Shown: one piece after another, positions 1 to 31,942 of the stretch
How positions within the stretch are numbered: position 1 is the stretch's first letter
Layout of the letters: every line of letters begins with the position of its first letter
IMG/VR virus record: IMGVR_UViG_3300022209_000009
Coordinates: 1 to 31,942 of that record
Source: a virus
DNA: 31,942 bases
Direction: 5' to 3' (one strand)
The notes under the pieces: model-generated
Database searches by the model: none
What the model was told of the DNA's origin: nothing
The model's input: only the letters and a program-made list of their open reading frames with translations
Program-made: the position numbers and the translations under genes

Positions 1-126
1 CCGGATGCAAAGCGTCCCAGGCAGCGTCCCGAGCAGCGGCCCCAGGCAGCGTCCCAGCAGCGGCCCAGGCAGCGTCCCAGGCAACGGCCCCAGCAGCGTC
101 CCCAGCAGCGGCCCCAGCAGCGGCCC
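1..126. repeat. Terminal direct repeat, left copy
   Basis: Bases 1-126 are identical to 31802-31927. After that the copies differ: the last 15 bases of the window do not match 127 onward. Most of the repeat is itself a 12-bp tandem array, so the end could be an assembly overlap of a circular molecule, a true terminal redundancy, or a collapse of variable repeat number. The minus-strand reading frame is in the same phase in both copies, which supports joining the ends. Confidence 0.9.
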
Positions 127-724
127 CAGCAGCGGCCGCAGCAGCGTCCCCAGCAGCGTCCTGAGCAGCGGCCTGAGCAGCGGCCCAGGCAGCGTCCCGA
201 GCAGCGGCCCCAGGCAGCGTCCCAGCAGCGGCCCAGGCAGCGTCCCAGGCAGCGTCCCAGGCAACGGCCCCAGCAGCGGCCGCGTCTAATCGCACAGTTT
301 CCAATGTGGGCAGAATCGCAGGCGTCGTATCAGCGGCAAGGGCTGGCATCCCGGCGAACAGCTCGGCTTGCGCGATCAGTCCAGCGAAGCGCAGCCAAGT
401 GGGGGTCTGAACTCGGACGAGCCAGTCGGCCGCCATCCACGCCAAATCAGACTCGACCTGCGGGTTGTCGGTTCGGGTGCCTACCACCTCCCAGAACAAT
501 GGTTTGATCAGGCGTTGACGGTCGGCGTCGTCGAGGCCGTCCTGCCATGTTCGCCCGACCGCTGCGATCACCGGCGAAACACAGTCAGGATGGTCGCTGA
601 AGTCCTCGCCGTTGGCGAAGCTGATCGCTTCCATCCAACACATTCCATCGTCGGGGTCGGTGTGTTCGCCCTGGTCGAGGGTGAGGTTGTCTAGCCAGAC
701 ATCGGGGTTATCGAGTGCGGTCAT
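1..724 (-). CDS. Ala/Trp/Asp-rich tetrapeptide-repeat protein, N-terminal part (continues across contig junction)
   Basis: The function is unknown. The frame starts at ATG 724, preceded by GAAGGAGA at a good distance, and has no stop down to base 1. It continues in phase at 31801 and stops at 31671. Joined across the 126-bp overlap it makes about 284 residues. Residues 1-150 are a non-repetitive, acidic, Trp-containing domain beginning MTALDNPDVWLDNLTLDQ. Then come about 20 tetrapeptide units of the AAWD/AAWA/AAGD/AAAR type, likely an alpha-helical rod. Similar AAWDAAW-type proteins occur in many actinobacteriophages without known function (from memory). The gene lies 61 bp after the previous one. 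The antisense ORF at 5-289 is a shadow of the repeat. Confidence 0.8.
   Translation of the reverse strand, partial: MTALDNPDVWLDNLTLDQGEHTDPDDGMCWMEAISFANGEDFSDHPDCVSPVIAAVGRTWQDGLDDADRQRLIKPLFWEVVGTRTDNPQVESDLAWMAADWLVRVQTPTWLRFAGLIAQAELFAGMPALAADTTPAILPTLETVRLDAAAAGAVAWDAAWDAAWAAAGTLPGAAARDAAWAAAQAAAQDAAGDAAAAAAGAAAGAAAGDAAGAVAWDAAWAAAGTLPGAAARDAAWDALHP
12..284. repeat. Degenerate 12-bp tandem repeat inside a coding region
   Basis: The array is built from variants of agcagcggcccc and aggcagcgtccc. Because the unit is 12 bp, each copy adds four residues to the minus-strand protein. A longer period is visible: 16-83 is repeated exactly at 184-251, an offset of 168 bp or 14 units, after which the second copy carries one extra 12-bp unit. 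This is what slippage or unequal crossing-over between units would leave. The array continues at 31813-31942. Confidence 0.9.
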
Positions 725-1598: not shown

Positions 1599-2942
1599 CT
1601 AGATGAGTGTTTGTTGGTGCCCGTGGGCGGTGACGGGCGACAGCCCGGCCGTTGGTTTGAGGTTGCGCCACACTTCGGCGTACCGCTCGGGCAACAGCTG
1701 AGCGTTGTCGGGGTCGAGGTCGATACCGGTGGCGTCACGCCCGTGGATGTCGGCTACGGCCAACGTGGTGCCGGTCCCGGCGAACGGGTCGAGGACGTGA
1801 CCTGGCCTCCAGTTGTTGTGCCCGCAGTCGGACCAGCCGAGCGTGCGGGAAACGACCGCCATCCTTGGGCCGCCGTTGATGCCCCGATTGTTTCCTTCGG
1901 GTTCAGTAGCGTCTCTTCGTGTTGTTGCTCCTCCGCCGGAATGATCTGGCACATATGACCGATCGGTGATTCGTCGGCGTGGCTCTGAGCATTCCCGGCA
2001 GACCTCTGCGGGGCACATCGAGAGGATCAGGCGTTCAGCGAGTTTGGCGGGCCACATGGCGTAGTGGGCGAGCGAGCTCCCGGCCGAGTTGATCAGCCAT
2101 GTGAGGTCGCCGTCGTATTCGTCGTGCCAGTGATCGACCGGCGGCGCACCACCAGGATGGACACCAAGGTTGCTGATGCCCTTGTCGCCCCGGTCGTTGT
2201 TAGGTCCTTTGAGTCCTTCGGTCGCTGTCCGAAGTCGCCAACCTGCAAATGGTTCGGTGCGTACGGCGTCGAGGTCGAACCACCGGCGACCCGACGGACA
2301 CGCCACCGTGATATACGACGTCGCCGGGCGGACCTTGTCGCCGAGCGCACCCACTGGCGGGTTGTTGCGGGCCCAGACGATGACGTTACGGATCCGCCAC
2401 GGTTCGAATACCGGCTTGATCGGGATGGCACGCGTTAACCAGTCGGCCGACGGGGCGCTGATCCCGAGCCGGGCCAGCCGACAGATCCACTCGACCCGCT
2501 CGGCCCCGATCGACGGGTCGACGAGGTTGCGTCCGTAGGCGAGCGACCAGGCGAACAGGGTCGGGACACCGGTCAACGACTTCGACAGGGGCCAACCGGG
2601 CCCGCTGGCGTTCGGCTTCTCCGCATTCGATGTCACGCCGCGCCCGTTCGGATATCTGCTATTGCCGTTGTCGTCTCCCCAGCCTGATTTGCCGCTGTAG
2701 GTGTCGCCCAGCTCCCAAGCCAACGAACCATGCGGCGCCAACACACGACGGCACTCGACCGCCAACGTCAGCAGGTTGTCGAGGAAATCGGCCGGTGTCG
2801 CCTCGGAACCCCATTGCCCGTCGACGTCGTTGTAGTTCCGGAGCGCGAGGAACGGCGGCGAGGTGGCGACCAGGTCGACCGAGTCGTCGGGCAGTGTGCG
2901 GATAGTGGTCAGGGCGTCGCCCGTCAAATATTCGATAGTCAT
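1599..2942 (-). CDS. DNA methyltransferase (N4-cytosine or N6-adenine type, beta-class order)
   Basis: The protein transfers a methyl group from S-adenosylmethionine to an exocyclic amino group in DNA, probably to protect phage DNA from host restriction. The catalytic motif TSPPF is at residues 27-31; SPP(Y/F) favours N4-cytosine. The AdoMet-binding motif DPFAGTGTT is at about 385-393, followed by GIDLD. Motif IV before motif I is the beta-class order. Between them lies a target-recognition region with Trp-rich segments and a Cys cluster (CPAEVCRECSEP, with a later SDCGH) that may bind zinc. The start is ATG 2942, overlapping the previous stop as ATGA; a longer frame to 3215 overlaps two genes. 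No restriction enzyme gene is adjacent, so it is probably a solitary methyltransferase. Confidence 0.93.
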   Translation of the reverse strand: MTIEYLTGDALTTIRTLPDDSVDLVATSPPFLALRNYNDVDGQWGSEATPADFLDNLLTLAVECRRVLAPHGSLAWELGDTYSGKSGWGDDNGNSRYPNGRGVTSNAEKPNASGPGWPLSKSLTGVPTLFAWSLAYGRNLVDPSIGAERVEWICRLARLGISAPSADWLTRAIPIKPVFEPWRIRNVIVWARNNPPVGALGDKVRPATSYITVACPSGRRWFDLDAVRTEPFAGWRLRTATEGLKGPNNDRGDKGISNLGVHPGGAPPVDHWHDEYDGDLTWLINSAGSSLAHYAMWPAKLAERLILSMCPAEVCRECSEPRRRITDRSYVPDHSGGGATTRRDATEPEGNNRGINGGPRMAVVSRTLGWSDCGHNNWRPGHVLDPFAGTGTTLAVADIHGRDATGIDLDPDNAQLLPERYAEVWRNLKPTAGLSPVTAHGHQQTLI

Positions 2943-3121
2943 TCGACGCGGAACCAGCGCAATCGGGCGGAGTCTCGGGCTCGGGCTCGACGCTTGAGCC
3001 GCTCGGCTCGCTGCTCGTCGGTGAACACGGTCAGGTCCTCGGTTGGCTGGTTCGGTTTGTCGGCGATCGACGACAGGAACCGTCGAGCGTCGGCGAGCGC
3101 TTGAGCATCGTTCGGGGTCAT
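2939..3121 (-). CDS. Small hypothetical protein, 60 aa, charged
   Basis: The protein begins MTPNDAQALADARRFLSSIA and ends in a strongly basic Arg-rich segment (RLKRRARARDSARLRW), which would suit nucleic-acid binding. I recognise no family. Both ends are 4-bp ATGA overlaps, with the replisome-organizer-like gene upstream and the methyltransferase downstream, so it is almost certainly translated as part of that operon. Confidence 0.75.
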   Translation of the reverse strand: MTPNDAQALADARRFLSSIADKPNQPTEDLTVFTDEQRAERLKRRARARDSARLRWFRVE

Positions 3122-4152
3122 AGCTCGGCCTCCCTGGCCGCTCGGTTGGCTCGCTGTAGCGCTTCTCGTGCTGCGGCGAGATTGGTCTTGGCGACCTCGG
3201 GCTCGACCTGCTCAAGGTTCAGGTAGTCGAACGCTTCATCGCCAGCGATGTTGGCCATCGGGTTCGGCTCGTCGTGGTTGCCGTTGAGCTTGACCGGTGG
3301 CGTGCTCGTGACGGTGCCGAGCTCGGTTAGGCCCTTGAGCCATGCCCGACGTGGGTTGTCGGCGTCAGCGCATCGCTCAGCAAGGTCGAGAACTTGGTCA
3401 TAGGTGGTCCCTCGGCTGAGCGCTCGGGCAACAGTTCGTATCTCACCCTGCGTGGTTTCTGGTTTCACGTAGCCCATGGCCTTGAGAGCGTCGATGGTGG
3501 TGAGCGCTGCTGGCTCGCTGGTTGTCCGATTCTCATCGTCGTCCAATTTTGACGCTGACCCTCTTTGGTAAATTGTGGACGACGGAGTGTTTTTTACGTC
3601 TCCGTCTCCGTCTCCGTCTCCGTCTCCGTCTCCGTCTGAGCACGTGCTAGCACTGTCCTTCACCTCAGGTGGAGCATGATGCTTGACCCCTGGAGTAGCA
3701 CTAGGTGAAGCATGGGGTGGAGCATCGCCACCAGGGGAAACGCAAAGCGGGCAAGCATCGTGCGGATCCTTCGAGTGAATGCCGCGCTTGTGGTGAGCGA
3801 TCAGCGCTCCGATTCGTTTCCGGTCTCGCCGTTGCTCTATCTGTGTTTGAGATTCGTTCCATCTCAGAAACGAACGCACGAGATAGGCGTCGGGGTCGTC
3901 GGTTTGCTCCCAAAGTCCCATTTTGACCAGTTCGGCGGCGCCCTCGAGCACATCGTCGGGCTCGAGGGCGCCCCACTGAACGCCGACCATCGCCCGTAGT
4001 GAGATGATCCCATCGTCTTGTGATGCCTTGGCCAGCGCTATCGATGTCACGAACAGCAACCGAGCCGGTGCGCCACAAGCGAGCCACGCACGGTCATGGA
4101 TGATGCCGGCGGACAGTCGAGCCCATCCCGACTCCGGCGCTAGTTCGCTCAT
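3118..4152 (-). CDS. Replisome-organizer-like / winged-helix replication protein
   Basis: The N-terminal 110 residues (WARLSAGIIHDRAWLAC, then a winged-helix-like segment with LVKMGLWEQTDD and LVRSFLRWNESQTQIEQRR) match the pattern of phage replisome organizers and DnaD-like initiators, which bind the origin and help load the helicase. A low-complexity linker follows at about 140-210, with Cys residues and a run of Asp-Gly dipeptides encoded by a hexanucleotide repeat. A helical C-terminal domain lies at about 215-280, with ALKAMGYVKPETT and a tail rich in Ala, Arg and Glu. Its place beside the RecT-like and YqaJ-like genes supports a replication role. The start is ATG 4152, in an ATGA overlap with a 30-codon ORF. 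Confidence 0.75.
   Translation of the reverse strand: MSELAPESGWARLSAGIIHDRAWLACGAPARLLFVTSIALAKASQDDGIISLRAMVGVQWGALEPDDVLEGAAELVKMGLWEQTDDPDAYLVRSFLRWNESQTQIEQRRDRKRIGALIAHHKRGIHSKDPHDACPLCVSPGGDAPPHASPSATPGVKHHAPPEVKDSASTCSDGDGDGDGDGDGDVKNTPSSTIYQRGSASKLDDDENRTTSEPAALTTIDALKAMGYVKPETTQGEIRTVARALSRGTTYDQVLDLAERCADADNPRRAWLKGLTELGTVTSTPPVKLNGNHDEPNPMANIAGDEAFDYLNLEQVEPEVAKTNLAAAREALQRANRAAREAEL
3601..3636. repeat. Hexanucleotide repeat (tccgtc)x6 in replication gene
   Basis: There are six perfect copies of tccgtc, read as Asp-Gly pairs on the minus strand. The unit is frame-neutral, so copy number can change without breaking the gene. Directly beside it (3572-3598) is an A/T-rich stretch including gtgtttttta, unusual for this G+C-rich genome. 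Repeats plus an A/T-rich element inside an initiator gene resemble the lambda O arrangement and make this a candidate replication origin; that is inference. Confidence 0.85.
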
Positions 4153-4241
4153 GACATCGCCCCGAGAGAGGGCCCGAGCGTGCTCTGTAGCGCTGTGGTT
4201 CCCGCCGCCAGCGCGGCTCCGCTCGGGCCCTCGATCTTCAC
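4149..4241 (-). CDS. 30-codon micro-ORF locked between RecT-like and replisome genes
   Basis: The ORF starts at GTG 4241, overlapping the RecT-like TGA as GTGA, and stops at 4149, overlapping the next start as ATGA. It fills the whole gap between two otherwise unconnected genes and continues the operon's overlap rule. The product begins MKIEGPSGAALAAGTTALQS and is rich in Ala, Gly, Ser and Thr. It could be a real micro-protein or only a coupling device that carries ribosomes to the next start. No family recognised. Confidence 0.5.
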   Translation of the reverse strand: MKIEGPSGAALAAGTTALQSTLGPSLGAMS

Positions 4242-5080
4242 GCCGTCACCTCGGCGAGTACGGCGCGGGCAAGGTCCTGGTCTTGCACGATGTCGGCCAC
4301 CAGAGCGACGCCACCGGCGCCGAGCTTACTGGCAGCCCGGAGCAGGTCGCCGACCTTGGCCGCCTTGCGTAGCTCTTCCTCGGTGATGGATGGCTCGGGC
4401 TCGTCGTCGTCGACGATCTCGGCATCGGGCGGCTCATCGTCGAACTCGTCGTCGAACTCGGCTGGAACTTCGTGCGGGTGCTGGCCGTCGATGATGTCGA
4501 GCGGGTCGGCCTCGGGCTCGTCGTAGTCCTGTTCGGCGTCGATCATGCCGGCAGCGGTGCGCACGTAGCGCCGGTCGGCCTTGCGGCAGGCCTCAGCAAA
4601 CAGCATGTCGTCGGGATGGAGGGCCCACGGTGTCGGCTTGCCGCTCTTGTACTTCAGGTTCCGGGGTCGATCGTCGAAACGGGCCGTGATGGGGTCGCCG
4701 ATTCGTTTCGGTACGCCGCCGGAGTGGTTCCACACCTCGACGGTGCACAGCTCGGTTGTGGTCTCGGTGACCTTGAACTCGAAGCCACGAGCAACAGCCA
4801 GCTCGATCCGCATCTGCGTTTTCACCCACGGCTTGCCGTCGATGACGTCGATGTTCTGGACGGCGGTGAAGATGTCGACATCATGCTTGTCGCCCCACAT
4901 CTTGGCCAGGAGCACAGCACCAGGCTTGCCACGGTAGGCGACCGGTATTAGGTCACCGGCCGAGGCGATGGCGTTGCACAGCTGGAGCACCTCCGGTAGC
5001 TGGCCGGACACGCCAGCGATGGCGTGCGGTACGGGCGCGCTCGGCTCGGTCCTGTTGCGCACGGTGATAGCTTCGCTCAT
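4238..5080 (-). CDS. RecT-family single-strand DNA annealing protein
   Basis: The protein anneals complementary single strands in phage recombination, working with an exonuclease. The recognised core is at residues 40-180: DLIPVAYRGKPGAVLLAKMW, then FTAVQNIDVIDGKPWVKTQM, an Ala/Arg helix, beta-strands with TTTELCTVEVW, and KPTPWALHPDDMLFAEACR with RRYVRTAAGMIDAE, in the usual RecT order. The C-terminal third is very acidic (repeated DEFDDE and VDDDEPEP) and ends in a short helical domain; such tails often mediate partner binding. The start is ATG 5080, in an ATGA overlap with the upstream gene. The YqaJ-type nuclease two genes upstream is its natural partner. Confidence 0.85.
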   Translation of the reverse strand: MSEAITVRNRTEPSAPVPHAIAGVSGQLPEVLQLCNAIASAGDLIPVAYRGKPGAVLLAKMWGDKHDVDIFTAVQNIDVIDGKPWVKTQMRIELAVARGFEFKVTETTTELCTVEVWNHSGGVPKRIGDPITARFDDRPRNLKYKSGKPTPWALHPDDMLFAEACRKADRRYVRTAAGMIDAEQDYDEPEADPLDIIDGQHPHEVPAEFDDEFDDEPPDAEIVDDDEPEPSITEEELRKAAKVGDLLRAASKLGAGGVALVADIVQDQDLARAVLAEVTA

Positions 5081-7743: not shown

Positions 7744-7940
7744 TCTCGTCGAAAGTCCTCGCACAAACCGCCGTCGCGGTAGCGGCCGGCGTAGCGTGCG
7801 TGGCCGCCGATCTGCAAGAGCAAGGGCTCGAGCTGCCCGGGTGGGTCGCCATCGCGCTCACGGCAGCATCGCCGATCGTCGGATACATCAAGGCCGAGAA
7901 CCATCCAGCGCCGTCAGCGATAGCGGCGGCGTCTCGCTAG
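7740..7940 (+). CDS. Putative holin-like membrane protein 3, 66 aa
   Basis: GTG 7740 overlaps the previous stop as GTGA. Two hydrophobic segments are seen: residues 7-24 (LAQTAVAVAAGVACVAAD) and 34-50 (GWVAIALTAASPIVGYI), then a polar tail. The gene ends in TAG at 7938-7940 within the palindrome CTAG, which also supplies the stop of the converging minor tail gene. It is the third member of the cassette; a holin or related lysis function is likely from context. Confidence 0.65.
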   Translation: MISSKVLAQTAVAVAAGVACVAADLQEQGLELPGWVAIALTAASPIVGYIKAENHPAPSAIAAASR

Positions 7941-10900
7941 TTAGCGGGGTGAGGTTGAAAAGCCCCAGGGTTCGGAGTGGTCCTGTTGATGGTGCGCTGT
8001 GAGATGTCCTCGGCGATGTAGAAGTCGATGTCGGTGATGCTCGCACCGGCCCCGATGAGCGCCGAGGTGAGCGCCAGGTCGAACGCTGAGCCGTTGCCGT
8101 AGGTGAGCCACTCGGCGTCGCCAGCGGCCCCGATGGCCGGCACCGTGGCGATGAAGTCGGCCGCCGCGGCGTCTACCTCGCCGGTGGCCGGTGACGCCTG
8201 GTCGACGATGTTGTTTCTCAGGTCAAACGTGATAGTCCCAGGGAAGGCACCAACAAACGGGCTCCCATAGCCGGCGTTCTCGAATGAGTCATCGCCCCAG
8301 AACGTATTGTTGATGACCCACGTCGGGTCGTTGCGGAACTCGGCCAGGGCCTCGGTGTCGTTGGCGCCGAGCTCGTTACGGGCCCGCCACATCGGGTGCG
8401 TGCCGGTCTCGGGTTTGGCCCACATCACATTGTTGGCGATGCGGATTCCCGAGAGGCCGATGTAGCCCATGATGTTCGTCGAGGTGCCTTCGGTGTTGGT
8501 GATGTTGTTGTCGTAGACCCGGTTGCCTTCGACCCACACCTCGGGGTCGATGTCGAACGCTGTCCCGTCTCGGGTGTCGAGGTCGGCACTGACATAGAGA
8601 ATCGACATCGGCGCGCCGCTCGAAGCGTGACCGATATAGAACTCGTTGTCGGTGATGTAGATACGGCGGCAACCTGGTTTGACGTCGAGAGCGTCCGATG
8701 TCCAGTCGGTGGCCCTGTTGCCTCGCACCCAGACGTCGGCGGCGTAAGAGACCCAGCCAGGCGCCGAGCCGCGGCCAAGGTAGATGCCTTCACCCGGAGC
8801 GACACCGGTGCGTAAGCCAACGCCGTCGATGGTGTTCTCTTCGACGACGGCGAACTCGCTGTATCCCCACTCGTTGCCCGAGCCCGCCGGTGGCGTACCG
8901 CCCGATGTGGTGATGAGCTGGAACCATCCCTGGAGCGTGATGCCGGCGTCGCCGATGTTGTCGACCGTGCAGTAGGCGATATAGGCGGGGAAGCCAGCCG
9001 TACCGCCCCAGTTGAGCGTGCGGATACCGAACTGCCCATCGCGGACGTTGAAGCCGACCGCCCAGACATGGCGGCAGTTCGTGAGGTCGAGCACGCCGAC
9101 ATTGCTGCTCGTGTCATTGTCGTCGACGAACACACCGTCGGCGCACGTCACGATGATCGGCAAGCCAGCTTCGCCGCCATCGGGTGACGCCGTCAGGTTG
9201 GAACCAGACAGGCCGTAGAGGTCGCCTCGGGCGGTGATGGCGCCACCAGGGTCGAAGCCCGTCGTTACTCTGACCAGGTCGCCAGGTAAAGCGTTACCCA
9301 TCGCCGTGGTCCACGTGGCGGCCGAGGTGACGTTACGGGTCGCGCCACCGGTCGAGGCGACCCAATCATCGAGGATGTCATCGAGGTCGGCCCGCACAAT
9401 CGGATAGGTGCCGGTGTAGCCGAGCGCGTCGAGCACGTGAGCCGGTGCGCCCGAGGTGGCGAGCGTGTCCTGTCGGCGGAACGACACCGAGTGCGCCTCT
9501 GGTGGATCGACCACACCGCCGCCGGTAGCCCACGGCGAGTACGGCGTGGTGAGCGCATCAATGGTGTGGGTGTAGTTCCCGATCTGCTCGCGGGTCCCTT
9601 GGATGATCTGGTCGATGTCGGCCGTGCCGAGCGCGACCGTGAGATTGTTGGCCACTCGGATGCGGTCGCCGAGCGATGAATCGAGAATCGCCGAGGTGAG
9701 CGCCACATCGCCGACGAGCTCGGGTGTATGAAGGGCGAGCGTGAGCTTGGACACTCGCGGCTCATCCACCGTGGACAGCGCCAGTCTGGTCTCAGCCAAG
9801 TCCTTGAGTCGGGTGTCCTGGCCGTTCACGTCGAAGGTGTCGTCGTAGCGGCCGGCGCCGACCGGTGGCTCGGAGACACTCAACGCCGAACCGTCGTCGA
9901 GCACAGCGCGAGCGGTACTCCCGCTCTTGTTCTTCACCTGGACATCGTTGGCGAAATCGGAGTCATCGCGGTCGAGCTGTGGTGGTGCCGCCACCTCGCC
10001 GGCGGAGTAGTCGAGGTCGATGATGATCGGCTGATTCGTCATCGACGTACGGGTGCGGTACCCGACCGCCACCGATTCTCGGGACTCGTGCAAGATGCCG
10101 AGGTCGGTGGCTGCGCATTCGTCGAGCAGGTCCATCAGGGTCCCGGCCCGCTGTGGGCCCATCTGCTCGGTGTCGGATGGATTGCCCTCGATGCGATGGG
10201 CGATGCCTTCCTCCTCGAGCAGTCGGACGATACGGTCGCCGGCCTTCTCGCCGTCATAGGCGTTCAGCTCGGTGGCCAACTCGGTGCTCGGCGTCTCGGT
10301 GCCCTGCAACGTGAAGTGACCGAACGCCCAATCGCCGACGTTGAACTGTGGGTTGATGTCGATGAACGTGACTCGTCCAGCGCTGCCCGCTACCGCTGAT
10401 GTGATATCGAAACCACCGGCGATCGGCTGGTCTTGTTCCTGGCCGGTCAAGAGCAGGTTGACACTGGAGCCGTTCTGTTGGACTGACAGTGTCATACGGA
10501 ATCCGCGCCCGGTGGCGTTAAAGCTGGTCCATGTGCCCGTGTAGACGTTGGTCAAGCCGCGGGACGCCACAATGCGCAGCTGCCCGCCGGCGTCGTCCCG
10601 AAACTGGACGAACCAGTCAATATCTGTGGTGCCGATGCTCAAATAGGTGAGAGCAGCACCAGCGGTGAAAGTGTCGGGGATGTGCTGCAACCAGCGGAGC
10701 TGCCACTCGCCGCTAGCGGTGTAGGAGTCGACGTTGCAGTACATGTGCGAGTCGCCGAGGGTCGGCAGTGGAGCCGACGCAAGGAAGACATTGTTCGATG
10801 CGGCGTTCGGTGCCGGAACATGCGTTGGGTCTTCAAGGATGAACGAGGCCGTACCGATGGCTGCGCCAAAGGCCGACACGTTCGGGCCCTCTTCCTCACA

Positions 10901-12733
10901 CGGCCAGTACTGAATCACGTCGGTGGCTGAGCTGACAATCGCTCGACGAATCGCCGAATCAAGGCGCCGCTTGCCTTGACGCAACCGCCGGAAGAGTCCG
11001 GTCGCCTCTACCGGCGCGGTGACGTCGACGCCTTGGACTTCCCAGCGCACCGGCAACGATGCGAGCTCGCCGTGGAACCTCCATAGCATGTTAGTGATTC
11101 GCCCACCAGTGCCGATGGTCCATGTTCGCCCGGCAGCATCGGCGAACGATGTGGCGCCGACGGCCTGGGCGTTGAAGCGAGGGTTTGCTATGACGGTGTC
11201 GATTTCGTTGCGCAGGTCGAAGGCGAATATCTTGCCGGGGAAGGGTGCGTGGTTGGCGTCGCCAGGGTTCCCGCCGATCCGTAGCGGCGCATCGTTGGTC
11301 CCGATCGATGTGGTCCCGGCCGTGGTGACCGTCGAGCCGAGCTGCGTCCACGTGCCGTCGATGACGGTCGACGTATACCACGTCAGGTCGTGGCCCGAGG
11401 CGCCGTTGTCGACATCGAGATCAACACGTAGCGCTCGGTGCTCGTGCAGGAAGTCGAGCGGCAGGTCGGTGCCGGTGGCCTCGGTCGTGACGTTGTGGGC
11501 CACACCGCTCGAATCCCACCACGAGAAATTGCTGACCAGCGCGCCGTCGTTGGCGGTGTAGAGCTCCCACTCGAAGCCGTCGGCCCCGCTCGTCTTGTGG
11601 GCCAGGCGGATCCGTTCGCCGGTGCCGTCGGCGGCCAAGCGGTTCGGGTCCTCGGCCGGCTCGAGCTCTACCCGCAGGTCGATGTCGCCCGAGACGTCGA
11701 GCACACCGTCGGAGCTGGCATCCTCGATGGCCCGGAACACGAGCGTCACGCCCTGCCAATTCTCGGCGCCGGTCAGGGTGAAAACGGCAGGGTCCAACGT
11801 GGCGAGCGAGGTCGTGTGATGAGCCGACCCGATCTGAACCAGCGATGCCACGTTGCCGTCAGCCACCGAGGTGAACGACGTCGGATAGGCCGACACGGTC
11901 TCACCGGCCGACCCGTAGAACGCGAAGGCATACCACCTGTGCTCATCCGCGCCCCATGACGTGGTGAGCGATGGTGGATTCGGTGAAGCGCTGGACGTTG
12001 AGGTCAAGTCATAGGCGATGTCCCAGGCGATGCCTTCGCCACCGGCCCGAGAGCCGCCGACACGGATCACCTGAGCCGACGAGCGCACGGCGTTGGTCGT
12101 GGTGAAGGTCACGGTTGCACCGGCCAGCGCGGCGGCGGCGGTCGTATCGAGCACGGGTGAGATGTAGATGGCCCAGCCGTTCCACGGCGTGTAGAGGTTC
12201 TCGGCGGCGGCGAGTGTCCACGTGGCGAGCTCGGTGGGCGCGGTGTAGTTCTGGTGGCCGAACGTGACGGCGCAGACGAGGCGGTTACCGGCGGCCACCG
12301 TGGCCGGCATGTCGACATCGTGACTCGTGGTGTAGGCGGTCTCGGCCGATTCGGTGACGTCGATGTGGGTTGGCGCGGTCGGTGCCCCGCCACCGGTACC
12401 GGCAATGTCGGGCGTCGATGCCACGTCGGCCGAGACCGCCGTCGGGGCTAGGTGGACCTCGCCGCGCCCAATGCCGACCCGGCACGGGATGTTCCGTCGG
12501 TAATTGCCGGCGTAGGCGCCCGCGCCGTAGTCGGGCGACCAGCGGCCATCGCGGTTATCCAGCGTGAAGCTGGCCCGACCCGGATCGACCTGAGCGGCCC
12601 AATCCGAGCGGCCATGGTTCAAGGTGACCGCATCAGACAATCGGACGCCGTCGCCGGTCGCCACCGCATCAACCCATGCGCCATTGATGAACAGACCGAC
12701 CTCGAGGTCGATCGGGTCGGTTGGCCACGCCAT
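7937..12733 (-). CDS. Giant minor tail protein with LamG-like and C-terminal beta-helix domains
   Basis: This 1598-residue protein probably forms the tail tip and binds, or enzymatically trims, the host surface. The N-terminus (residues 1-95, with FTLDNRDGRWSPDYGAGAYA) matches the usual start of actinophage minor tail proteins. A concanavalin/LamG-like beta-sandwich begins at YWPCEEEGPN near 611 and ends near 810. Residues 850-1100 resemble the tail-hub part of these proteins. From about 1110 the sequence becomes a right-handed parallel beta-helix with Asn ladders (VEENTIDGVG, VRGNRATDW, ITDNEFYIG, VEGNRVYDNN). The gene starts in a TGATG overlap with the tape measure. Fusion of tail-hub and spike-like domains in one chain is notable. 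No catalytic residues can be assigned. Confidence 0.9.
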   Translation of the reverse strand: MAWPTDPIDLEVGLFINGAWVDAVATGDGVRLSDAVTLNHGRSDWAAQVDPGRASFTLDNRDGRWSPDYGAGAYAGNYRRNIPCRVGIGRGEVHLAPTAVSADVASTPDIAGTGGGAPTAPTHIDVTESAETAYTTSHDVDMPATVAAGNRLVCAVTFGHQNYTAPTELATWTLAAAENLYTPWNGWAIYISPVLDTTAAAALAGATVTFTTTNAVRSSAQVIRVGGSRAGGEGIAWDIAYDLTSTSSASPNPPSLTTSWGADEHRWYAFAFYGSAGETVSAYPTSFTSVADGNVASLVQIGSAHHTTSLATLDPAVFTLTGAENWQGVTLVFRAIEDASSDGVLDVSGDIDLRVELEPAEDPNRLAADGTGERIRLAHKTSGADGFEWELYTANDGALVSNFSWWDSSGVAHNVTTEATGTDLPLDFLHEHRALRVDLDVDNGASGHDLTWYTSTVIDGTWTQLGSTVTTAGTTSIGTNDAPLRIGGNPGDANHAPFPGKIFAFDLRNEIDTVIANPRFNAQAVGATSFADAAGRTWTIGTGGRITNMLWRFHGELASLPVRWEVQGVDVTAPVEATGLFRRLRQGKRRLDSAIRRAIVSSATDVIQYWPCEEEGPNVSAFGAAIGTASFILEDPTHVPAPNAASNNVFLASAPLPTLGDSHMYCNVDSYTASGEWQLRWLQHIPDTFTAGAALTYLSIGTTDIDWFVQFRDDAGGQLRIVASRGLTNVYTGTWTSFNATGRGFRMTLSVQQNGSSVNLLLTGQEQDQPIAGGFDITSAVAGSAGRVTFIDINPQFNVGDWAFGHFTLQGTETPSTELATELNAYDGEKAGDRIVRLLEEEGIAHRIEGNPSDTEQMGPQRAGTLMDLLDECAATDLGILHESRESVAVGYRTRTSMTNQPIIIDLDYSAGEVAAPPQLDRDDSDFANDVQVKNKSGSTARAVLDDGSALSVSEPPVGAGRYDDTFDVNGQDTRLKDLAETRLALSTVDEPRVSKLTLALHTPELVGDVALTSAILDSSLGDRIRVANNLTVALGTADIDQIIQGTREQIGNYTHTIDALTTPYSPWATGGGVVDPPEAHSVSFRRQDTLATSGAPAHVLDALGYTGTYPIVRADLDDILDDWVASTGGATRNVTSAATWTTAMGNALPGDLVRVTTGFDPGGAITARGDLYGLSGSNLTASPDGGEAGLPIIVTCADGVFVDDNDTSSNVGVLDLTNCRHVWAVGFNVRDGQFGIRTLNWGGTAGFPAYIAYCTVDNIGDAGITLQGWFQLITTSGGTPPAGSGNEWGYSEFAVVEENTIDGVGLRTGVAPGEGIYLGRGSAPGWVSYAADVWVRGNRATDWTSDALDVKPGCRRIYITDNEFYIGHASSGAPMSILYVSADLDTRDGTAFDIDPEVWVEGNRVYDNNITNTEGTSTNIMGYIGLSGIRIANNVMWAKPETGTHPMWRARNELGANDTEALAEFRNDPTWVINNTFWGDDSFENAGYGSPFVGAFPGTITFDLRNNIVDQASPATGEVDAAAADFIATVPAIGAAGDAEWLTYGNGSAFDLALTSALIGAGASITDIDFYIAEDISQRTINRTTPNPGAFQPHPAN

Positions 12734-22593: not shown

Positions 22594-22985
22594 GAGAGTT
22601 ACGGCGCCATCCGTGCCGGGCTTGCCGTGCCTGGCCACGCCGAGCGTTGCCCTGCCTAGCCCTGCCTGGTCACGCCCATCCGCGCCATGCCGTTGCTGGC
22701 TTGCCATGCCATGCCCCGCCACGCCCAGCCCAGCCGAGCCGGACCGAGCCCAGCCCCGCCATTGCTGCCAGGCCTTGCCTGGCCGCGCCTCGCCGTGCCA
22801 GGCCTTGCCAGGCCCGGCCCCGCCGAGCCAAGCCATTGCTGCCATGCCTTGCCCAGCCCCGCCTTGCCAGGCCCAGCCAGGCCTTGCCGCGCCCAGCCGA
22901 GCCGTGCCCATCCGTTGCTGCCATGCCGAGCGTTGCCCTGCCTAGCCACAGCCAGCCGCGCCTTGCCGTTGCTGGCTTGCCATTC
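22594..22985. repeat. Degenerate pentanucleotide (GCCNN) array
   Basis: About 390 bp consist almost entirely of GCCNN units on the plus strand (GGCNN on the minus), for example ccatgccatgccccgccacg. The repeat is broken at five places by ttgctg, at 22693, 22762, 22836, 22915 and 22969; the spacings are 69, 74, 79 and 54, each one less than a multiple of five. All six reading frames are open through it, giving Gly/Ala/Arg or Pro/Leu/Cys-rich nonsense, so I treat it as non-coding. It lies between the converging portal unit and the minus-strand pair. Terminator, origin or recombination roles are open. Confidence 0.9.
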
Positions 22986-23396
22986 TCAGCCGTCGAGCGC
23001 TCGACTGAGGAACTCGACCAAGGTCTCATCGCCAAGCCGACGATGTTTCAGCACGAACGTACGGGCATCGCGCATCGCCGCTTCTTCGAGTTGGCCACGG
23101 TGATCGGCTACCGCTAGGTCCCCGTCCATCCATCGGCCCTCGGATGCAACACGCGTGAACTTGCGAACTGTGACGGTTCGCTCGCTCGACTCGATCGTTA
23201 CCCGGTATCGGACAATGAGCCGCCCGGCTTGGGCTAGCCGGTGCTGGTGAGCCGCCGCCGAGTCATCCCACTCGAAATCTGAGTGACACGGATGGTCTGG
23301 GTCGGATGCCATGTCGAGCAGAGTCTCCTGGTCAAGTTTCCCGGCGGCCTCCAGCTCGACGAGCGCAGCCAGCTTCTCTGCAGATGACGCGCTCAT
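22986..23396 (-). CDS. Conserved phage protein of unknown function (partner of 23393-24019 gene)
   Basis: The 136-residue protein begins MSASSAEKLAALVELEAAGK, then LLDMASDPDHPCHSDFEWDD and SAAAHQHRLAQAGRLIVRYR, followed by a beta-rich half. HP(L/C)H...FEWDDS.AA followed by a helix is a pattern I have seen in many phages, usually just downstream of a gene like the one here. The N-terminus may be a small helical DNA-binding unit. Start ATG 23396 is in an ATGA overlap with the partner, so the two are co-translated. The stop is at the edge of the pentanucleotide array. Confidence 0.75.
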   Translation of the reverse strand: MSASSAEKLAALVELEAAGKLDQETLLDMASDPDHPCHSDFEWDDSAAAHQHRLAQAGRLIVRYRVTIESSERTVTVRKFTRVASEGRWMDGDLAVADHRGQLEEAAMRDARTFVLKHRRLGDETLVEFLSRALDG

Positions 23397-24019
23397 TCGA
23401 CTACCTCGAAGGTTCCATAGGTGCCGGTCGCCGACTTGGGCGCTGTGGGGCGCCACTCGCCGACTCCCCCAACGCCAGCCGCATCCACGAGAGCGAACAT
23501 CGAGCCGGTATCCACCTGTCCTTCGATCGTGCGAACCTGCAAGACAGCCGACCAGCCGTTGTACTGAGCCCGGTACCGGAGATCGGCAACGCCGGATGCG
23601 TTGCGGGGTGTGTCTTCCCGCATGATCACGTCATCGAATTCGAGCTTGACCAGTTCGTCGCCTCGATCATCGACGCCGTCACCCTTGACCAGAACCGTTT
23701 GCTTCAGACTGACCTGAGTGATGCCGTCGAAGAGTCGGCCGGCGTGAACAATCGCGGCCTTGAATGCCGTCGCGGGGAAGCCGTCGGCGCCATCCTTGAG
23801 CAGGTACTTGCTGGCTTCGTAGTTGGCGACAGGGTCCTTCGCCTCTTTCTTGGCTCGGGCGTTGGTCTGTTGCTTCTCAAGCATCATGTCGCGGGACTTC
23901 TGCGACCAACGGTTCACGATAAGCGGCGTTACACCGCGAATCGGAATCTCGATGGTGATCCGCTCCAGGCGTCGCAGCTCGATAACTGGAGCTTCGTTGT
24001 TTGCTACCTTGGTAGGCAT
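23393..24019 (-). CDS. Conserved phage protein, possible RAMP/Cas7-like fold
   Basis: The 208-residue protein starts at ATG 24019 after a strong GAGGAGG. Its segments are ITIEIPIRGVTPLIVNRWSQ, a basic helix (MMLEKQQTNARAKKEA), GFPATAFKAAIVHAGRLFDG, and a Gly-rich end with DAAGVGGVGEWRP and TGTYGTFEV. Proteins of this pattern are widespread in phages without assigned function. The beta-start, a proline followed by FK and an Ala-helix, and a late Gly-rich loop recall the RRM-like fold of RAMP/Cas7 proteins; this is only a shape-based guess. A nucleic-acid-binding role near replication or recombination is plausible. Confidence 0.75.
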   Translation of the reverse strand: MPTKVANNEAPVIELRRLERITIEIPIRGVTPLIVNRWSQKSRDMMLEKQQTNARAKKEAKDPVANYEASKYLLKDGADGFPATAFKAAIVHAGRLFDGITQVSLKQTVLVKGDGVDDRGDELVKLEFDDVIMREDTPRNASGVADLRYRAQYNGWSAVLQVRTIEGQVDTGSMFALVDAAGVGGVGEWRPTAPKSATGTYGTFEVVE

Positions 24020-31674: not shown

Positions 31675-31942
31675 TCTGGTTCATCCCCTGCATAGTCGGC
31701 GTTATCCATCGTTCTCGCTCCGAGATCCATCCTTCTGGCCTTGGCATGAACACACATGCGAACGAGCAGGTCCCCAGCAGCAGCCTGCAGCTCGACCACA
31801 ACCGGATGCAAAGCGTCCCAGGCAGCGTCCCGAGCAGCGGCCCCAGGCAGCGTCCCAGCAGCGGCCCAGGCAGCGTCCCAGGCAACGGCCCCAGCAGCGT
31901 CCCCAGCAGCGGCCCCAGCAGCGGCCCAGGCAGCGTCCCCAG
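31671..31942 (-). CDS. Ala/Trp/Asp-rich repeat protein, C-terminal part (continues from base 724 across junction)
   Basis: This is the other end of the gene that starts at 724. The frame enters from the right edge in the repeat, passes through ARDAAWDALHPVVVELQAAA and ends GARTMDNADYAGDEPE at TGA 31671. The non-repetitive end after the array holds an amphipathic helix (VVELQAAAGDLLVRMCVHAK). The phase matches the left part exactly when 31802-31927 is laid over 1-126. The stop overlaps the Cys-rich gene start by 4 bp. Confidence 0.8.
   Translation of the reverse strand, partial: GDAAWAAAGAAAGDAAGAVAWDAAWAAAGTLPGAAARDAAWDALHPVVVELQAAAGDLLVRMCVHAKARRMDLGARTMDNADYAGDEPE
31802..31942. repeat. Terminal direct repeat, right copy, with 12-bp tandem array
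   Basis: 31802-31927 equals 1-126. 31928-31942 then differs from 127 onward, although it still consists of the same 12-bp units in a different order. The final bases could therefore be another arrangement of the array, from population variation or assembly through a repeat. Confidence 0.9.

What the first reader, a model, noticed from the sequence alone, without database searches (positions are those of the whole stretch)
22594..22985. Pentanucleotide GCCNN array with phased TTGCTG interruptions
About 390 bp follow a strict 5-bp period with two variable bases per unit. Interruptions ttgctg at 22693, 22762, 22836, 22915 and 22969 are spaced 69, 74, 79 and 54 bp, all one less than a multiple of five, so each interruption shortens one unit to four bases and each block is a whole number of units. 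All six frames are open. It lies exactly where a plus and a minus transcription unit converge. The constraint on GCC but not on the other two bases suggests selection on a structure or a protein-binding or strand-exchange property, or generation by an error-prone templated process.
Basis: partly seen in the sequence, partly recalled or inferred. Interest (0 to 1): 0.75.

Follow-up and report, generated by a model that had tools for sequence, protein, structure and literature searches.

The report
Five-guide VIPR array in a phage
The odd five-base repeat is a row of five guide RNAs beside a CRISPR-like protein gene, which a phage probably uses to find and silence the DNA of rival phages; this kind of system (VIPR) was first described in a 2026 preprint and this is a new member of it.

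Summary
From 22618 to 22967, read on the minus strand, lie 66 pentamers GGY-NN: GGC mostly fixed, NN close to random (entropy 1.92 and 1.98 bits). Four-base slips (usually CAAY) divide them into five blocks of 10, 15, 14, 13 and 14 units. The first block starts 18 bp after the last gene of a minus-strand pair: a Cas7/RAMP-like protein (23393-24019) and a small partner (22986-23396).

Such arrays sit near the same protein in 80 of 120 viral stretches fetched by the repeat pattern alone, and the protein is absent from 80 portal-relative controls. Conversely, 8 of 10 isolated phages picked by the protein alone carry the array. The protein family matches PDB 36pp, 'SUSP1 Vipr protein' (E 5e-47). 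The locus fits VIPR (PMC13142463, 2026): guide RNAs of 9-16 GGY/NN repeats bound by Vipr, only NN being read against DNA.

So this is a VIPR guide array, a new member of a very recently known kind. Added here: a minus-one register break at most guide junctions, and whole-guide gain or loss between sister mycobacteriophages. I found no target for the guides; targeting of rival phages is inferred from the preprint.

The parts
23393..24019 (-). vipr: Cas7/RAMP-like protein, 208 aa, phrog_4652, G-loop region GVGEWRPTAPKSATGTYGTF
   Evidence: PHROG match E 2.4e-31; family profile matches PDB 36pp SUSP1 Vipr, E 4.8e-47; AlphaFold pLDDT 93.8; closest solved folds are Csm3/Cas7, Z 11.6
22986..23396 (-). 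vap (probable VIPR accessory gene), 136 aa, phrog_15946, conserved FEWDD..AA...R..QAR; its ATG overlaps the vipr stop as ATGA. The longer ORF call to 23456 adds 20 residues modelled at pLDDT about 40
   Evidence: PHROG match E 1.2e-14; same family beside vipr in other loci; ATGA overlap; pLDDT
22618..22967 (-). vrRNA guide array: five guides of GGY/NN pentamers
22914..22967 (-). guide vr1: 10 units + CAAC; NN = AA GC TG GT TA AG AA TC AT AG
22835..22913 (-). guide vr2: 15 units + CAAT; NN = TG AC TC TG GC AA CT TG CT AA GG TG AA AT AG
22761..22834 (-). guide vr3: 14 units + CAAT; NN = TT TC GG CG CT AA CT AC GA GC CA AA CT AG
22692..22760 (-). guide vr4: 13 units + CAAC; NN = GG TG TC CC TC TG TG GT GG AT AT AA AG
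22618..22691 (-). guide vr5: 14 units + GCCC; shares the core GGCTA GGCAG GGCAA CGCTC GG with vr1
22968..22991 (-). start of the array: GGCTG AGAAT GGCAA GCCAG CAAC, spanning the vap stop, with the first copy of the CAGCAAC junction word
22594..22617 (-). degenerate 3' end of the array, running up to the portal stop codon

Best explanation
The array is the guide-RNA part of a phage VIPR system. The minus-strand gene pair vipr-vap is followed at once by a string of five vrRNAs. Each is 10-15 GGY/NN pentamers, and a four-base slip (usually CAAY) breaks the five-base register between them. Shown here: the anatomy, the protein family and fold, the two-way association of gene and array, and the GGY/NN statistics. 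Inferred from the preprint on relatives: the transcript is bound by Vipr subunits; GGY is held and does not pair; the NN pairs are read against double-stranded DNA with one skipped base between pairs (NNxNNx...); the complex silences matching genes, mostly of competing phages, satellites or prophages. My own inference: one Vipr subunit sits on each pentamer, and the register break at each junction ends one Vipr filament and starts the next, so that a continuous repeat text is read as separate guides.
For: Grammar: in 2815 units from other arrays, chosen by their neighbours only, position 1 is G 97.8%, position 2 is G 96.8%, position 3 is C 92.6% or T 5.5%, and positions 4-5 have entropy 1.92 and 2.00 bits. 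Guides of 10-15 units fit the published 9-16. Array to gene: Vipr in 80 of 120 viral stretches fetched by pattern only, and in 0 of 80 controls; in every stretch with both, the nearest array lies on the strand opposite to vipr, so GGY is in the sense of the gene. Gene to array: 8 of 10 phages picked by Vipr homology alone carry an array scoring above all their shuffles, with the same strand sense. In bacterial stretches, Vipr is present in 4 of 13 with diverse NN against 1 of 107 with low-diversity NN. The family profile matches the solved SUSP1 Vipr at E 4.8e-47. AlphaFold pLDDT 93.8; best solved folds are Csm3/Cas7. Coliphage Alf5 shows one repeat tract upstream and two downstream of vipr and its partner, much like the one upstream and three downstream reported for SUSP1. 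Published biochemistry: PMC13142463.
Against: No target was found: 8-unit seeds of vr2-vr5 in IMG/VR gave 29 hits whose flanking units match at chance (81 of 352), and vr3 and vr4 gave none in 296 genomes of the class of an Acidimicrobiia genome; vr1 was not scanned. The window protein alone does not reach 36pp by phmmer; only the family profile does. No transcript data. There is no room between guides for the 3' tail described for SUSP1 vrRNAs. A few units are degenerate (GCTGT, CGCTC, GACCA). 40 of 120 pattern-selected viral stretches show no Vipr; some end near the array.
Confidence: 0.94

Rival explanations
1. It is a plain pentanucleotide microsatellite made by replication slippage, with no function.
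For: Such arrays exist in bacterial genomes: 107 of the 120 bacterial stretches fetched have low-diversity NN, for example (GCCGA)n in Saccharibacillus.
Against: Slippage copies NN as well; here NN is near maximal entropy while GGY is about 97% fixed. Diverse arrays go with the vipr gene.
Confidence: 0.02
2. It is a DNA element: a protein-binding tract for recombination, replication or packaging, acting as double-stranded DNA.
For: It lies beside the head genes; the phage has RecE- and RecT-like genes; the GCC register is strict.
Against: Portal relatives lack it; its strand sense relative to vipr does not vary, which a DNA tract would not need; related arrays are known transcripts bound by Vipr (PMC13142463).
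Confidence: 0.03
3. It is a VIPR array, but decayed or aimed mainly at something other than rival phages (self-regulation, host genes).
For: No target found in viral contigs; some units are degenerate.
Against: Both genes are open, translationally coupled and keep conserved residues; 60 of 66 or more units keep each GGY base; the CGCTC variant recurs in two guides, so it is copied rather than random decay.
Confidence: 0.15

Closest known systems
VIPR systems (Viral Interference Programmable Repeat), PMC13142463, bioRxiv 10.64898/2026.04.26.720920
   Same: Vipr RAMP homolog, small accessory gene, GGY/NN guide RNAs of 9-16 repeats beside the genes, in a phage.
   Different: The type II systems characterised there (SUSP1, P. 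fulva prophage) have vrRNAs with a 3' tail and, in SUSP1, a vap1 gene. Here five guides abut with four-base junctions and the accessory gene is of another family (phrog_15946). [quoted passage not shown] S18), perhaps this layout; its supplement could not be read here.
VIPR loci of Cheoctovirus mycobacteriophages such as Donkeykong and Quico
   Same: Vipr 55% identical to the window's, same accessory family, same array strand sense.
   Different: The array lies upstream of vipr, between it and a DUF7304 gene; the usual junction word is GGCAGGC instead of GGCAGCAAY. That these are VIPR loci is my reading; the preprint's main text does not mention mycobacteria.
Class 1 CRISPR-Cas (Cas7/Csm3 backbones and CRISPR arrays)
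   Same: Same protein fold (Z 11.6 to Csm3); a row of guides beside the gene.
   Different: No long identical repeats and no contiguous spacers; guide information is spread over NN pairs.

Membership tests
VIPR | RAMP-fold Vipr protein with glycine-rich loop | tested here: met
   AlphaFold pLDDT 93.8; Foldseek and VIA-align best matches are Cas7/Csm3; GVGEWRP loop, with W156, R190 and G202 invariant in 66-68 homologs
VIPR | Sequence homology to the characterised SUSP1 Vipr | tested here: met
   Profile with the window protein as first row against PDB 36pp_D, E 4.8e-47 over 192 residues; single-sequence phmmer does not reach it
VIPR | vrRNA of 9-16 repeats, GGY fixed, NN hypervariable | tested here: met
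   Five blocks of 10-15 units, each GGY base 95-97% kept, NN entropy 1.92 and 1.98 bits; that they are transcribed is not shown
VIPR | Minimal locus: vipr plus a vap gene, flanked by noncoding guide DNA, mostly in viruses | tested here: met
   ATGA-coupled gene pair followed by the array in a record with terminase, portal, capsid and tail genes; the accessory gene is identified by position only
VIPR | Guides transcribed and bound by Vipr | not testable with these tools
   Needs sRNA-seq and pull-down
VIPR | Targets matched with the 1-nt skip rule | tested here: inconclusive
   No target for vr2-vr5 in IMG/VR, nor for vr3 and vr4 in 296 genomes; the true target may not be in these sets
VIPR type II (SUSP1-like) | vap1 accessory protein | tested here: not met
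   The accessory profile finds the window, ODay, Cy-LDV1 and Donkeykong genes (E < 1e-33) but not the partner genes of Alf5, LESphi2, LittleE, MakoManhole (E > 0.2); Alf5 stands in for SUSP1, whose own record I did not fetch
VIPR type II (SUSP1-like) | Each vrRNA followed by a conserved structured 3' tail | tested here: not met
   Four bases separate one block from the next; a tail overlapping the next block was not tested
CRISPR array | Identical repeats of about 21-48 nt with unrelated contiguous spacers, with cas genes | tested here: not met
   The words shared by junctions are about 9 nt (GGCAGCAAY); no PADLOC match to the window's two genes
Simple sequence repeat | One unit repeated with few variants | tested here: not met
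   15 different NN types in 47 adjacent units

The most novel reading that the evidence does not exclude
The minus-one register break (GGCA-GGC, or longer words that also add 4 mod 5) is a general punctuation rule of tail-less VIPR arrays: it caps each Vipr filament, so that a phage can pack many guides head to tail with a four-base separator and gain or lose whole guides by recombination.
Probability: 0.35. Interest if true: 0.65.

Novelty: new member of a known kind. Interest (0 to 1): 0.55.

Why it matters
VIPR was reported only in April 2026 and its diversity is barely mapped. This locus is a compact five-guide example in a phage whose portal resembles those of phages of Actinobacteria, with an accessory gene unlike that of the characterised type. 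The survey shows how to find more: GCCNN arrays with diverse NN mark vipr genes, and several GenBank phage records annotate such arrays as proteins. Sister mycobacteriophages that differ by what look like exactly one or two whole guides are natural material for asking how guides are gained and lost, which bears on the origin of CRISPR.

Tried and rejected
Treating the repeat as a conserved neighbour of the portal: 80 portal relatives carry none. Reading the array as coding: frames are open for trivial reasons. Literature searches for pentanucleotide repeats in phages gave nothing relevant. Pfam and NCBIfam give no meaningful name to the two genes, and PADLOC has no match to the window's. Finding Vipr relatives in IMG/VR by peptide patterns failed, so the reverse test was done on isolated phages. 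Target search: 8-unit seeds of vr2, vr3, vr4 and vr5 found 29 places whose flanking units match at 23%, that is by chance. My first impression that vr3 hits a conserved small-terminase motif did not hold up: the hits lie in different proteins. A guide shared by mycobacteriophages gave two hits that I did not follow. An all-against-all skip-rule test on fetched loci was confounded by the seeds used to fetch some of them and by repeats. The accessory protein's model has no confident structural match in the PDB, so its role stays open; this is no evidence of a new fold.

Full report
What is there. The minus strand from 22967 to 22618 reads as pentamers GGY-NN. Splitting at the four-base slips gives five blocks of 10, 15, 14, 13 and 14 pentamers, 54, 79, 74, 69 and 74 bp long. 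The pattern is far from chance: chain score 118 against a maximum of 13 in 300 shuffles of the window and 25 in 2000 resamples of the region itself.

Where it sits. The record is a phage genome or fragment of 31.9 kb with terminase, portal, capsid, tail, RecE- and RecT-like genes. The portal gene runs toward the array on the plus strand. On the minus strand two coupled genes run toward it: 23393-24019 (phrog_4652) and 22986-23396 (phrog_15946), overlapping by ATGA. The first full block starts 18 bp beyond the stop of the second gene. Portal relatives at 43-80% identity have no array, so the array does not belong to the head module.

What it goes with. I fetched 120 viral stretches using only the pattern (GCCNN)5GCC. 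A profile search begun from the window's 23393-24019 protein found a homolog in 80 of them, in none of the 80 portal controls, and in 5 of 120 bacterial stretches fetched with a longer pattern. Of those five, four have diverse NN; most bacterial hits are simple microsatellites without the gene. In every stretch with both, the nearest array lies on the strand opposite to the gene, so in gene sense it reads GGY/NN, and it often starts within 3-70 bp of the stop codon of this gene or of its phrog_15946 partner. The reverse test used isolated phages chosen by the protein alone: 8 of 10 carry an array scoring above every shuffle, again on the opposite strand (Gordonia phages ODay, UmaThurman, Trine and MakoManhole; cyanophage Cy-LDV1; coliphage Alf5; Pseudomonas phage LESphi2; mycobacteriophage LittleE). 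Medea1 is marginal and phiHSIC has none.

What the protein is. A profile of 68 homologs matches one PDB sequence, 36pp chain D, 'SUSP1 Vipr protein', E 4.8e-47. The AlphaFold model of the window protein (pLDDT 93.8) matches Csm3 and other Cas7 proteins (Foldseek probability 1.00; VIA-align Z 11.6, 154 residues, rmsd 3.6). The only paper in the library on such systems is PMC13142463. It reports phage-encoded Vipr proteins, guide RNAs (vrRNAs) of 9-16 YNNGG repeats, reading of DNA by the NN pairs with one skipped base, silencing of targets without a PAM, targets mostly in satellites and prophages, and seven types with different accessory genes.

Fit to VIPR. Guide length, GGY/NN grammar, gene pair, phage context and protein family all fit. 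In 2815 units from other arrays, chosen by their neighbours only, the three GGY positions are 97.8, 96.8 and 98.1% conserved and NN has 1.92 and 2.00 bits. The window does not look like a type II system: its accessory protein belongs with those of mycobacteriophage Donkeykong, Gordonia phage ODay and Cy-LDV1 and not with the partner genes of Alf5 and LESphi2, and there is no room for a separate 3' tail between guides. Which other type it is I cannot tell, because the supplement was not available. The accessory protein's model has no confident structural match.

Grammar of the junctions. In all arrays together, 179 of 218 block junctions shift the register by 4 mod 5, most often through GGCAGGC (124 cases), and internal blocks peak at 8-12 units. 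My reading, not tested, is that the broken register ends one Vipr filament and starts the next.

How arrays change. Cheoctovirus mycobacteriophages carry homologous arrays. SwagPigglett and ByChance differ by one 59-bp indel and nothing else; Donkeykong and Brocalys by 113 bp and one substitution in an NN; SwagPigglett and Gorge by 5 bp. These sizes fit one guide, two guides and one repeat unit. Substitutions in the alignable parts fall mostly on NN, though the alignment of distant pairs is uncertain.

Targets. With the 1-nt skip rule, 8-unit seeds of vr2-vr5 found 29 places in IMG/VR, but the remaining units match at 23% (81 of 352), which is chance. vr3 and vr4 have no match with up to 3 mismatches in 296 genomes of the class of an Acidimicrobiia genome; that the host is actinobacterial is itself only a guess from portal and Vipr relatives. 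The targets are unknown, and 'weapon against rival phages' is an inference from the preprint.

Verdict. Observation confirmed; interpretation partly right. The feature is a VIPR guide array with vipr and a vap-like gene, a new member of a kind first described in 2026.

Noticed in passing
L343:3894-4280, L345:1099-1287, L376:3628-3951, L392:3082-3885: GenBank records of mycobacteriophages Donkeykong (gp48) and Pippy (gp47) and Gordonia phages UmaThurman (gp40) and Trine (start of gp40) annotate proteins over what look like vrRNA arrays; the ORFs are open only because GCCNN text has few stops.
   Followed up: partly
L389:2098-2392 and 2507-3579: Pseudomonas aeruginosa LES prophage LESphi2 carries a vipr gene and partner with three short repeat tracts upstream, between a gene annotated as sigma factor and vipr.
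   Followed up: partly
L294:892-1716 and 3762-4355: An alphaproteobacterial MAG contig carries two vipr-like genes about 2 kb apart, with an array and a phrog_15946 gene.
   Followed up: no
window 16-281 and 31812-31942: Both window ends lie in a 12/24-bp tandem repeat (CCCAGGCAGCGTCCCAGCAGCGGC); the first 120 bases recur exactly at 31802, so the record may be circular or terminally repetitive.
   Followed up: partly
L082:3502-4530, L126:1970-2653, L347:1-661: ParB-like genes (phrog_1033) lie directly beside some arrays, possibly another accessory type; a gene annotated as ParB-like also lies near the corresponding place in the array-less relative DosHalletts.
   Followed up: no
window 22618-22691 and 22914-22967: Guides vr1 and vr5 share an identical stretch GGCTA GGCAG GGCAA CGCTC GG, suggesting guide duplication and divergence within the array.
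   Followed up: no
window 7937-12733: A 1598-aa ORF on the minus strand matches phrog_5313 (unknown function) and more weakly a phosphodiesterase family, next to a tape-measure-like gene.
   Followed up: no
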